Below are positions 2 to 2,327 of a stretch of 20,754 nt of DNA, piece after piece (the first letter of the stretch is position 1; each line of letters opens with the position of its first letter). The notes beneath the pieces are model-generated. The model worked only from the letters and a program-made list of their open reading frames with translations, had not been told where the DNA came from and searched no databases. This DNA is from a virus. The DNA lies in the IMG/VR virus record IMGVR_UViG_3300013137_000129, positions 1 to 20,754 of that record; one strand, written 5' to 3'. The position numbers and the translations under genes are program-made.

Positions 2-388
2 AACAATACCCTTTTCTCCAAAGACGTGTTAATCCCGACCAATAACCCGGCGTATTACCTGCAAATTAAGCATAGCTCAAGCGCAAGCACTACCGGCACC
101 GCATTAAACTATGATGATGGCGCCGATAATAGGCTTGAGTCAGCTAATGCCGGAGCAGCAACCGCAACTATGGACTTGTCGCTTAACAGCCAGTCCTTCA
201 ATGATTACACACTGCCAGGCTCTAAAGGAAAACTTTACAGACAAGGAACTTACGGAGATGTAAAGCTTCGTGCCGGGCGTACTTGGTCTAATGGCTCGAC
301 TTGCGGCTCGCGTGGTCGTTTTGCGAATAGCTACCGCTGGCATGCGCGTACGTTTCTCGGTTGCCGGTTTTGCGCGGAGCCAGTGTAG
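2..388 (+). CDS. DGR target (variable) protein, 3' part only
   Basis: The reading frame is open from base 2 of the window, so the true start lies upstream and only about 128 C-terminal residues are seen. The last 41 codons carry the variable repeat. The pattern LRAGRxWxxG...R...GCRF resembles the C-terminal core of the formylglycine-generating-enzyme-type C-type lectin fold used by many DGR targets. Fixed residues (R, G, W, C) alternate with residues encoded by template AAY codons. The segment before the repeat is rich in Ser, Thr, Ala and Asn, as in structural virion proteins. By family knowledge such proteins are ligand-binding tips, in phages usually receptor-binding. That role is inferred here. 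The protein ends ten bases after the repeat, so the diversified face lies at the extreme C-terminus, as is normal for DGR targets. Confidence 0.85.
   Translation, partial: NNTLFSKDVLIPTNNPAYYLQIKHSSSASTTGTALNYDDGADNRLESANAGAATATMDLSLNSQSFNDYTLPGSKGKLYRQGTYGDVKLRAGRTWSNGSTCGSRGRFANSYRWHARTFLGCRFCAEPV
265..378 (+). repeat. DGR variable repeat (VR)
   Basis: This 114-bp copy aligns without gaps to 459-572. The 15 differences are at 282, 287, 288, 300, 307, 320, 321, 330, 341, 344, 347, 348, 353, 354 and 356. In each case the partner base in the template is A; here it is C seven times, T five times and G three times. Fourteen of the changes alter the amino acid and one (GGA to GGC) is silent. The last 22 bases (357-378) match the template exactly and contain one A, at the final position. 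This fits the role of the IMH region where mutagenic homing begins. Confidence 0.97.
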
Positions 389-458
389 ACGAAGTAAACA
401 GATAACGTAACACGGGTCGTTTTTTGAAAATCAGGCTAATGTGTCACCGGTTGCTGCC

Positions 459-572
459 GCTTCGTGCCGGGCGTAATTGGAATAATGGCTCGAATTGCGG
501 ATCGCGTGGTCGTAATGCGAATAACTACCGCTGGAATACGAATACGAATATCGGTTGCCGGTTTTGCGCGGA
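459..572 (+). repeat. DGR template repeat (TR)
   Basis: This is the donor copy of the variable repeat, 194 bp downstream of it on the same strand. It has 26 adenines, 15 of which are replaced in the VR. In the frame of the target it holds ten AAY (Asn) codons, at 475, 481, 484, 493, 514, 520, 523, 535, 541 and 547. Eight of them are changed in the present VR. AAY codons are the hallmark of DGR templates: substituting their first two bases gives many amino acids and never a stop codon. Transcribed RNA from this repeat is copied by the adjacent reverse transcriptase with errors at A, and the cDNA replaces the VR. Confidence 0.97.
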
Positions 573-695
573 TACAGGTGCGGAACTAAACTCCTGGCTG
601 GACACGTTGGCCTTGCCGATAAAAAGGCAAAACACACAACGGAGGGGCAGGGCGGTTAGTAGCGTAAGCGAAAGTCACCCGGCCCAATATAATTA
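459..695 (+). ncRNA. Probable DGR template RNA (TR plus spacer)
   Basis: No gene is expected between the target stop (388) and the reverse transcriptase start (696), 307 bases in all. The TR occupies 459-572 and is followed by 123 nt up to the RT start. In the Bordetella phage element a spacer of similar size downstream of TR is needed for cDNA priming. That role here is inferred from position. Small hairpins can be drawn in the spacer, for example TTGCC/GGCAA at 613-617 and 626-630, but none is strong. The 389-458 stretch shows no clear feature. The true RNA ends are unknown. Confidence 0.55.
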
Positions 696-1724
696 ATGAG
701 ACGGCATAACAATCTTTATAAAAAGATAACTTCGATGGATAATCTTCGCCTTGCGTTTAAGAACGCCAGCCATGGAAAAAACTGGCAGCGCGCGGTTAAG
801 GAGTTCCGCATCGATACCGAAGCGAAGTTGCTTGCCATTAGGGAAATGCTGACAAACAAGACCTATAGACCGTCTCCTTACCGGGTAAAGCAGATTTACA
901 TACCCAAGACAAGGGATATTTATATTGCGCCTTTTACGCCTGACCGGATAATCCATCATGCGATCATGAACGTATTAGAGCCGATTTGGGAAAAGCTTTT
1001 TATCCACGACTCTTACGCTTGCATTAAGAACAAAGGGATACATAAAGGCAGTAAGCGTACCATGGAATTCGTGAGGCATAACAGATATTGCCTTAAGTGT
1101 GATATCTCAAAGTTTTATCCGAGCATGAAACACGATGTTCTTTACCGGATCATCCAGCGTAAGATTAAGTGCAAAGATACGCTCAAGCTATTAAAAGATA
1201 TAATTTATAGCATCCCAGACGGAAGGAATGTGCCGATAGGTAACTATACGAGCCAGTGGTTCGGTAATATCTACCTTAACGAAGTAGATATGCGCGCAAA
1301 GCATCTTTACAAGATTAAACACTACATCCGGTATTGCGATGATTTCTTGTTCTTCAGCGACAGCAAAAGCCAGTTGCGCGAGATCGCCAAGGACTTAAGG
1401 GTCTGGCTGGATAGAGATTTGGGCTTGCGGATGAGTAAATGCGAGCTGTTTCCGGTAACCCAGGGCGTTGACTTCTTAGGATACCGGCATTTCCCAGGAT
1501 ACGTACTCTTAAGGAAATCAACGGCAGTAAGGATAAAGCGTAGATTAAAGATTCTACCACGACTTTTTGAAGCCGGCAGGATCACCTTAGAGCAGTTTAG
1601 ATCATCAATCGCCTCAAGCGTAGGCTGGATGAAATGGGCCAATACGCATAACTTGAGCCTTAAAACTCAAATTGATCAACTTCAGGAGTTCATCAATGGA
1701 AAAGCAGCCCAAGCGGTTCAGTGA
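696..1724 (+). CDS. DGR reverse transcriptase
   Basis: A 342-residue RNA-dependent DNA polymerase that copies the TR transcript into mutagenised cDNA. Palm motifs appear in order: HDSYACIKNKGIHKG (residues 104-118), KCDISKFYPSMKHDVL (134-149, catalytic D136), VPIGNYTSQWFGNIYLNEVD (179-198), YCDD (213-216, catalytic aspartates) and GVDFLGYRHFPG (257-268). The IGNxTSQ form of the fourth motif is typical of DGR and group II-related enzymes, not retroviral ones. Length is normal for DGR RTs, with a short thumb and no maturase or integrase domain. The ATG at 696 has no visible SD site and lies in a TAATG junction with an upstream frame that runs through the TR. ATG 735 is a less likely alternative because it would remove part of the N-terminal region. 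Confidence 0.96.
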   Translation: MRRHNNLYKKITSMDNLRLAFKNASHGKNWQRAVKEFRIDTEAKLLAIREMLTNKTYRPSPYRVKQIYIPKTRDIYIAPFTPDRIIHHAIMNVLEPIWEKLFIHDSYACIKNKGIHKGSKRTMEFVRHNRYCLKCDISKFYPSMKHDVLYRIIQRKIKCKDTLKLLKDIIYSIPDGRNVPIGNYTSQWFGNIYLNEVDMRAKHLYKIKHYIRYCDDFLFFSDSKSQLREIAKDLRVWLDRDLGLRMSKCELFPVTQGVDFLGYRHFPGYVLLRKSTAVRIKRRLKILPRLFEAGRITLEQFRSSIASSVGWMKWANTHNLSLKTQIDQLQEFINGKAAQAVQ

Positions 1725-2001
1725 ATTTGCGCGCGAGAATATGCCCTTGGAGGGCTCGAAGCTTAAGCTTGATGAGGTAGTTAATCGGGAGATAACGGTT
1801 ACAGACTACCGGATTAAGGATAGCCGGTATAAAAAAGATAGCGCGCCGCGTTGTTTGACTTTGCAATTCTCATTAGATAGTAAAAAATATATCTTGTTTA
1901 CCGGATCGAATGTTTTAGTAGACCAGATTGATAAATATAAAGCCGAGATACCGTTTATCACGACCATTAAGAAGATAGATAAATATTACACATTTACTTA
2001 A
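1696..2001 (+). CDS. Small protein of unknown function in the DGR operon
   Basis: A 101-residue protein whose start overlaps the reverse transcriptase end by 29 nt in another frame. The ATG at 1696 is preferred over the TTG at 1672 because AGGAG (1684-1688) stands seven bases before it. The N-terminus is basic and hydrophilic. The rest alternates short beta-type segments (EITVTDYRI, CLTLQFSLDSKKYILF, FITTIKKIDKYYTF), which could suit a small beta-barrel or OB-like nucleic-acid-binding fold. That is only an impression. It does not look like Avd, the all-helical DGR accessory protein. The tight overlap points to co-expression with the RT, and a role in retrohoming is possible but unproven. Confidence 0.75.
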   Translation: MEKQPKRFSEFARENMPLEGSKLKLDEVVNREITVTDYRIKDSRYKKDSAPRCLTLQFSLDSKKYILFTGSNVLVDQIDKYKAEIPFITTIKKIDKYYTFT

Positions 2002-2015
2002 CGAGGAGGTAGCAG

Positions 2016-2327
2016 ATGAAAGGTTTTCCTAAATTCTTTAATACAAAGCAAGACGTCTTGAATGTTATTACCGAATATCCAGCAGAGACAAAAGTATTCT
2101 TGCAGAAGTGCATTGATGAGCGCTTTGATTGGATTACCATCAAGAAACTCGAAACAGGCGAATCCGGAGTAACCGATTCCACTCATCGTATCCAGGAATT
2201 AAAAGATGATCGCACGCAAGAAATAACCGAGAGATATCAGGAAGAATACAAAGAAGATCCGAATTGCAAGCTTTTTAGACTCGGTTTTACTGTTGAAGAG
2301 GCTCAAAATCTTGTTACCACAGCGTAG
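2016..2327 (+). CDS. Hypothetical protein following the DGR genes
   Basis: A 103-residue soluble, acidic protein I do not recognise. It follows the previous gene by 14 nt, and a near-perfect SD, GAGGAGGT (2004-2011), precedes its ATG. The N-terminal part (FPKFFNTKQDVLNVITEYP) suggests a short helix-turn region. Residues from about 58 to 80 (HRIQELKDDRTQEITERYQEEY) are strongly helical and charged. There are no cysteine motifs, TM segments or signal peptide. It is the last gene before an intrinsic terminator, so it probably shares a transcript with the reverse transcriptase. It could be a DGR partner or an unrelated small phage protein. Confidence 0.7.
   Translation: MKGFPKFFNTKQDVLNVITEYPAETKVFLQKCIDERFDWITIKKLETGESGVTDSTHRIQELKDDRTQEITERYQEEYKEDPNCKLFRLGFTVEEAQNLVTTA

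What the first reader, a model, noticed from the sequence alone, without database searches (positions are those of the whole stretch)
265..1724. DGR with adenine-only divergence between template and target
VR (265-378) and TR (459-572) align over 114 bp with no gap. All 15 mismatches lie at template A and none at its C, G or T. Ten AAY codons in the TR are in the frame of the target, eight of them changed in the VR, and 14 of the 15 changes alter the protein. With an intact DGR reverse transcriptase 123 bp away, the element looks complete enough to be active. This would let the phage change a surface protein by targeted mutation.
Basis: partly seen in the sequence, partly recalled or inferred. 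Interest (0 to 1): 0.9.

Follow-up and report, generated by a model that had tools for sequence, protein, structure and literature searches.

The report
Phage self-mutating tail-fibre cassette, unusual helper
This virus carries a diversity-generating retroelement, a cassette that rewrites the tip of its own receptor-binding tail protein; the cassette itself is a known kind, but it lacks the usual helper protein (Avd) and, like dozens of related elements, carries instead a small predicted nucleic-acid-binding-fold protein that seems to take its place.

Summary
In detail: VR 265-378 and TR 459-572 align over 114 bp without gaps, and all 15 mismatches lie at template A (chance about 4e-12). It is a genuine diversity-generating retroelement (DGR). 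The RT is closest in the PDB to the BPP-1 DGR RT, and the target of close relatives has the Mtd fold. Near-identical relatives show the process at work: in one pair all 15 differences over 9 kb lie in VR at template-A sites. VR copies the lineage-specific non-A changes of its TR.

As a DGR it is a new member of a known kind. A search with acc alone gave 80 viral loci: 78 have a DGR RT, two are cut off at contig ends. In three loci acc sits between VR and TR, the Avd position. Three contigs hold two DGRs, one with acc, one with Avd. RT phylogeny separates the types, ANMV-1 excepted. AlphaFold predicts an OB-fold order. I infer that acc replaces Avd in an active DGR lineage (about 0.65); this is untested biochemically, and the protein may already be listed, unnamed, in a survey I could not read.

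The parts
2..388 (+). 3' end of the DGR target gene (5' end beyond the contig): C-terminus of an Mtd-type receptor-binding tail protein
   Evidence: phrog_11262 tail protein E 1.3e-8; 72-78% identical to full-length targets in L003/L004/L006, which carry PF21916 mtd_2nd (L003, L004) and the Mtd fold (L004)
265..378 (+). variable repeat (VR); the last 22 nt (357-378) are identical to TR and take the place of IMH
459..572 (+). template repeat (TR), 10 AAY codons in the target frame; the last 22 nt (551-572) are the IMH* equivalent
573..695 (+). spacer RNA between TR and RT, conserved and structured, with a long 3' hairpin
   Evidence: 16 of 21 pairs covary, 0/500 shuffles reach any measure; covariance model matches 569-695 with 124.5 bits (a model member); sub-threshold full-length match to Rfam RT-14 (22.8 bits, gathering 48.1)
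696..1724 (+). DGR reverse transcriptase, 342 aa, with IGNYTSQ and YCDD motifs
   Evidence: RVT_1 1.3e-19, phrog_1423 3.3e-118, best PDB match 8ub7 (sequence of 9 entries) E 2.8e-58
1696..2001 (+). 'acc': 101-aa basic protein (pI 9.3) of predicted OB-fold order, overlapping the RT end by 29 nt; proposed accessory factor in place of Avd
2016..2327 (+). orf3: conserved neighbour, likely part of the tail module rather than of the DGR
   Evidence: follows acc in many relatives, lies upstream of the target in L015/L055-L057, follows RT directly in L021/L022

Best explanation
An active-type DGR diversifies the tip of an Mtd-like receptor-binding protein of a tailed virus. The TR and spacer RNA is copied by the RT, which misincorporates opposite template adenines; the cDNA replaces VR in the target gene, so progeny carry altered receptor-binding surfaces. 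In this lineage the usual accessory protein Avd is absent, and a small basic protein of predicted OB-fold order (acc, 1696-2001) takes its role, most likely by binding the spacer RNA and/or the cDNA together with the RT. Shown by sequence: the VR/TR relation, RT family, target family in relatives, covarying spacer RNA, linkage of acc with DGR RTs, and adenine-restricted VR variation in relatives. Predicted: the OB fold and the Mtd fold. Inferred: activity in this particular virus, and the accessory role and binding partners of acc. (DGR: about 0.97; acc as accessory factor: about 0.65.)
For: DGR. Natural experiments: L017/L018, 15 differences in 8,997 bp, all in VR at template-A; L016/L024, 18 of 18 in VR, 17 at A; L070/L071, 14 of 16 in VR, 13 at A. 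VR follows TR at 114 of 114 non-A site comparisons between the window and 9 relatives. Target: mtd_2nd E 4e-18; Foldseek top five hits are Mtd structures, E 3.5e-14 to 1.2e-13. acc: an acc-only search gave 80 viral loci, 78 with a DGR RT and 67 with a detected TR/VR pair; all 8 loci of the genome-contig scan have the RT; 7 of 616 sampled genomes carry acc, 5 with an RT, 1 at a contig end between VR and TR with the RT start, 1 a remnant beside a weak RT remnant. acc lies between VR and TR in L073, L114 and L152. bAvd: 0 of 50 acc records, while BPP-1, BalMu-1, PE002 and ACA1 score 110-142 bits and have no acc. Three contigs hold both DGR types with separate TR/VR. RT tree: 100/99 split between 8 Avd rows plus ANMV-1 and 74 acc plus 4 rows with neither; Avd rows form one side at 99/94 when two long branches are left out. 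Fold: pLDDT 86.7, strand order b-b-b-a-b-b. acc pI 9.3, BPP-1 Avd 9.55.
Against: No biochemical or genetic test. PDB Foldseek hits for acc are weak (no E below 0.05), though RPA, HIN and RuvB-like OB domains are among the top hits. L021/L022 have a related RT with neither acc nor Avd nearby, and crAss cr52_1 and Perkons RTs fall on the acc side without either, so an accessory is not always found. ANMV-1 has acc but its long-branched RT groups with Avd RTs. In 11 loci acc is 304-633 nt from the RT, and in the four inspected another ORF lies between. The post-VR hairpin is not detectable in the window.
Confidence: 0.75

Rival explanations
1. The DGR is real, but acc is not part of it: it is a tail-module or virus DNA-metabolism gene that travels with the locus, and this lineage works without any accessory, as reported for crAss-type 'lineage 3' DGRs.
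For: About a quarter of DGRs are said to lack the accessory gene, and crAss DGRs lack avd (PMC7290462). L021/L022 and the crAss and Perkons relatives have neither. orf3, another small gene, also accompanies many of these cassettes.
Against: acc is found almost only beside DGR RTs: 78 of 80 viral loci, the other two truncated, across RTs as little as 41% identical and in bacterial and archaeal genome contigs. It changes place but stays inside the cassette, including the Avd slot between VR and TR. No acc was found with an Avd-type RT of the tested set except ANMV-1. orf3 occurs on either side of the cassette and in fewer loci.
Confidence: 0.22
2. A DGR relic: the VR/TR pattern is left from past activity and this virus no longer diversifies (hairpin after VR lost, fragmentary record).
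For: The post-VR hairpin seen in L004/L009/L025 is not detectable in the window. No population data for this virus.
Against: RT and acc ORFs are intact; VR has no non-A drift and matches TR at every lineage-specific non-A site, which needs recent copying. Deleting the hairpin in BPP-1 impairs but does not abolish activity (PMC12875486).
Confidence: 0.12
3. The VR/TR pair is an ordinary duplicated repeat with mismatches at A by chance.
For: None found.
Against: 15 of 15 mismatches at A (3.7e-12), an adjacent DGR RT, and the same arrangement in dozens of relatives.
Confidence: 0.01

Closest known systems
Bordetella phage BPP-1 DGR (mtd-VR, avd, TR, brt)
   Same: Target-VR-TR-RT order, adenine-only VR/TR differences, structured spacer RNA between TR and RT, Mtd-fold target, clearly homologous RT (37.6% identity; PDB 8ub7 E 2.8e-58)
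   Different: No Avd between VR and TR; a 101-aa predicted OB-fold protein after the RT instead. BPP-1's spacer is Rfam Phage_DGR, which is not found in the window
ANMV-1 DGR (archaeal virus, Paul et al. 2015, PMC4372165)
   Same: VR-TR-RT-acc arrangement; the acc homologue directly after the RT is 40-42% identical
   Different: RT only 35% identical and on a long branch near Avd RTs. The paper draws an 'Avd' ORF; its text as read here does not say which ORF this is, and GenBank calls the acc homologue hypothetical
Caudoviricetes sp. vir525 (BK063673, host given as Methanosarcinales)
   Same: phrog_11262 target, TR, 55% RT and 51.5% acc in the same order
   Different: The other structural genes shown in the record did not match the window in my searches; DGR parts are not annotated as such in the record
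crAss-like phage DGRs ('lineage 3' of Wu et al. 2018, as reported in PMC7290462)
   Same: Target-TR-RT without avd; cr52_1 RT falls on the acc side of the tree
   Different: No acc detected by sequence in cr52_1
Rfam RT-14 and RT-17 RNAs
   Same: RT-17 scores above gathering in the spacer of the more distant acc group (L072, L078, L104); RT-14 matches the window spacer full-length below threshold
   Different: The window's spacer group is not covered above threshold by any Rfam family

Membership tests
Diversity-generating retroelement | TR/VR repeat pair whose mismatches lie at template adenines | tested here: met
   15 of 15 at A
Diversity-generating retroelement | RT of the DGR clade next to TR | tested here: met
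   Best PDB match is 8ub7, the BPP-1 DGR RT; phrog_1423; IGNYTSQ and YCDD motifs read in the sequence
Diversity-generating retroelement | Target with VR near its C-terminus, usually of C-type lectin fold | tested here: met
   VR ends 7 nt before the stop codon. Fold tested on the relative L004, the window target being truncated: Mtd structures are the top hits
Diversity-generating retroelement | Structured spacer RNA downstream of TR | tested here: met
   Covariation in 16 of 21 pairs
Diversity-generating retroelement | Adenine-directed VR variation with constant TR in a population | tested here: inconclusive
   Met for close pairs of relatives; not testable for the window's own population
Diversity-generating retroelement | Inverted repeat (hairpin) after VR | tested here: inconclusive
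   Hairpin seen in L004, L009, L025 folds but not in the window; known to be helpful, not essential (PMC12875486)
BPP-1-like (Avd-type) DGR | Avd (PF22296) in the cassette | tested here: not met
   No bAvd in the window record; positive controls score. The window is a fragment, but the 80 bp between VR and TR leave no room for Avd
acc-type DGR lineage described here | acc homologue in the cassette, no Avd, RT on the acc side of the tree | tested here: met
OB-fold nucleic-acid-binding proteins (acc) | Five-stranded barrel with helix between strands 3 and 4 | tested here: inconclusive
   AlphaFold strand order fits; PDB matches are weak though OB-type; binding not tested

The most novel reading that the evidence does not exclude
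acc is a second, structurally unrelated class of essential DGR accessory factor: an OB-fold protein that replaces the four-helix-bundle Avd across a whole RT lineage in bacterial and archaeal viruses and genomes, recruiting the RT to a distinct spacer RNA or handling the cDNA. Some viruses run both kinds of DGR side by side.
Probability: 0.6. Interest if true: 0.72.

Novelty: new variant of a known kind. Interest (0 to 1): 0.52.

Why it matters
About a quarter of DGRs are described as lacking the accessory gene (PMC7290462), although Avd is required in the model system; a conserved non-Avd partner would explain part of them. It would show that DGRs can run with a different helper, help separate what the RT does from what Avd does, and give a compact alternative system for targeted mutagenesis tools. 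Viruses holding one acc-type and one Avd-type DGR allow a direct test of whether the helpers are exchangeable.

Tried and rejected
1) Avd elsewhere in the record: none; the bAvd hits in the L013 and L025 records belong to separate second DGRs. 2) RT-acc fusion: the BFVD search gave phage RT proteins as top structural hits for acc (602 aa E 9e-7, 324 aa E 1.5e-6), which suggests fusions, but I could not read those records and found no fused ORF in my loci; left open. 3) Pfam, NCBIfam and PDB sequence searches for acc: nothing reliable; phrog_19665 (unknown function) matches 29 of 60 members weakly. 4) LCBv1 archaeal virus ORF as an acc homologue: E 0.7, treated as chance. 5) The ANMV-1 repeat 4434-4549/9363-9478 looked like a second VR/TR pair by score but is a near-identical duplication (6 differences). 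6) MFE folding of the single spacer is no better than shuffles (z -0.33); the structure rests on covariation. 7) Papers that list alternative accessory genes (Wu et al. 2018; Carrasco-Villanueva et al. 2024; Paul et al. 2017) are not held, so prior mention of acc could not be excluded. 8) A1 could not seed the genome scan; a tighter seven-sequence alignment A3 was used.

Full report
Observation. The claimed repeats are exactly where stated. VR 265-378 and TR 459-572 align over 114 bp with no gap; 15 mismatches, all at template A (7 A>C, 5 A>T, 3 A>G); identity collapses on both sides. The chance of 15 of 15 mismatches falling on the 26 A of 114 sites is 3.7e-12. In the target frame there are ten AAY codons in TR, eight changed; 11 codons change, 10 of them non-synonymously. 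An intact 342-aa RT starts 123 bp after TR. The window is the whole IMG/VR record, a linear 20.7-kb fragment, with lambda-type portal, head-tail and tail-tip genes downstream. The target gene is cut by the contig start.

Identity of the parts. The RT is RVT_1 and phrog_1423; its best solved relative by sequence is chain 8ub7 (that this is the BPP-1 DGR RT is from my knowledge, the table says 'Reverse transcriptase'). The target's end belongs to phrog_11262, tail protein. Full-length targets of the closest relatives (72-78% identical over the shared part) carry Pfam mtd_2nd (L004 E 4.3e-18). An AlphaFold model of the L004 target (pLDDT 81) has the five Mtd variant structures as its best PDB matches (E 3.5e-14 to 1.2e-13), followed by the Thermus DGR variable protein. 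The target is thus an Mtd-type receptor-binding protein.

Activity. A read-level test was not possible, but relatives give natural experiments. L017 and L018 differ at 15 of 8,997 positions and all 15 lie in VR opposite template A. L016 and L024 differ at 18 of 5,462, all in VR, 17 at template A. L070 and L071 differ at 16 of 5,941, 14 in VR, 13 at template A. Other pairs are uninformative (VR mostly absent or unchanged), and L056/L057 differ at six sites in TR, perhaps an assembly mix. For the window itself, comparison with nine relatives shows 114 non-A TR differences, at all of which both VRs agree with their own TR: VR is being overwritten from TR. Over 66 distinct acc-type VR/TR pairs, 1193 of 1890 A sites and 23 of 5811 other sites differ, with the caveat that the pair finder itself favoured A mismatches.

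The unnoticed part. ORF 1696-2001 ('acc', 101 aa, pI 9.3) overlaps the RT end. In the 23 loci found with the RT it is present after the RT in all but L021, L022 and L023; L023 instead carries true Avd. Searching with acc alone (alignment A1) returned 80 viral loci (best 80 of 111, some near-duplicates). 78 contain a DGR RT, 67 a detected TR/VR pair, and the two exceptions are truncated at contig ends. These RTs range down to 41% identity to my queries. All eight genome-contig hits (an Omnitrophota, a Bacillota, a Nitrospirae, a Chlorobiaceae and three Deltaproteobacteria MAGs, and the Methanogenium cariaci genome) have RT and acc together. In 616 sampled genomes of two groups, seven carry acc and all seven are linked to a DGR RT: five with an intact RT close by, one at a contig end with TR/VR and the RT start, one a truncated acc next to a weak RT remnant in a genome without an intact match. 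In L073, L114 (M. cariaci) and L152, acc lies between VR and TR, the position of the Avd gene in BPP-1.

Avd. The bAvd model finds BPP-1, BalMu-1, PE002 and ACA1 at 110-142 bits but nothing in the window and nothing in 50 acc-bearing records. Conversely an acc profile finds nothing in the Avd-type phages. The L013, L025 and L107 contigs hold two DGRs each, one acc-type and one with bAvd and an RT about 35% identical, each with its own TR and VR. An RT tree of 87 sequences splits eight Avd-type RTs plus ANMV-1 from 74 acc-type and four with neither accessory (support 100/99). Without the two long branches the Avd side is purely Avd (99/94). ANMV-1 is the one exception, with a long and unsure branch.

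Fold. AlphaFold on 60 acc sequences gives pLDDT 86.7 and strand order b-b-b-helix-b-b, that of an OB fold. PDB matches are weak but OB-type domains (RPA, HIN, RuvB-like) recur. In the viral library the top two matches are proteins annotated as reverse transcriptases, perhaps fusions; I found none in my loci.

Spacer RNA. The 123 nt between TR and RT are conserved. On 37 sequences 16 of 21 consensus pairs show compensatory change, and no shuffle of 500 reaches any of five measures. The long 3' hairpin carries most of it, with an invariant AGTA and near-invariant GAA across an internal loop, reminiscent to me of a loop-E motif (not tested). A covariance model recovers it in further acc-type loci and weakly or not in Avd-type ones. 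Rfam has related families: RT-17 in the distant acc group, Phage_DGR in BPP-1, RT-14 below threshold in the window.

Mechanism. The copying and adenine mutagenesis are as in known DGRs (established for BPP-1; PMC12875486). In BPP-1 the RT-Avd complex is recruited by the spacer RNA (same source). I propose that acc does this job here, or protects and hands over the cDNA. The steps supported are linkage, mutual exclusion with Avd, position, charge and predicted fold; binding and need are inferred.

Comparison and novelty. As a DGR this is a new member of a known kind, and 31,007 DGRs were already detected in public metagenomes (PMC8144416). The acc association makes it a variant. Prior art: Paul et al. 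2015 mark an 'Avd' ORF in ANMV-1, unclear which. PMC10053308 lists Avd, HRDC and MSL and mentions one further associated protein without Pfam or CDD entry, citing an earlier survey that I take to be Wu et al. 2018; it could be acc. That paper and Carrasco-Villanueva et al. 2024 were not held. I therefore do not claim first sight of the protein; I found no description of an OB-fold DGR accessory in the papers searched.

Host. Closest named virus relatives are given as infecting Methanosarcinales or an uncultured archaeon, while the nearest genome contig is binned to Omnitrophota (RT 69%, acc 74%). The bin assignment of a viral contig is weak, and the host stays open.

Noticed in passing
L006 3669-3832 and 7618-7781; L003 3666-3830 and 7607-7768; window about 2397-2462: A 164-bp direct repeat (identical in L006) with a terminator-like hairpin brackets the target-DGR-orf3 module in two relatives; the window has a similar element downstream of the module (its upstream side is beyond the contig). 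It might mark how the module moves or is transcribed.
   Followed up: partly
G011:C43 (L138/L139), G003 (L140/L141), G001 (L013/L142): Three contigs carry two complete DGRs of different RT type; in two of them the Avd-type DGR has two VRs for one TR.
   Followed up: partly
L066 3272-3589, L070 3353-3685, L078 3631-3966, L084 3690-3998: An extra ORF of about 102-111 aa, apparently conserved, lies between RT and acc in a more distant acc group.
   Followed up: no
window 2016-2327: orf3, a small conserved gene of the tail module found on either side of these cassettes, without reliable family match.
   Followed up: partly
L056 and L057 2690-2806: Two contigs 99.9% identical differ at six sites, all within TR; possibly reads of VR assembled into TR.
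   Followed up: no
L021 and L022: Close RT relatives with orf3 directly after the RT and neither acc nor Avd detected on the fragment.
   Followed up: partly
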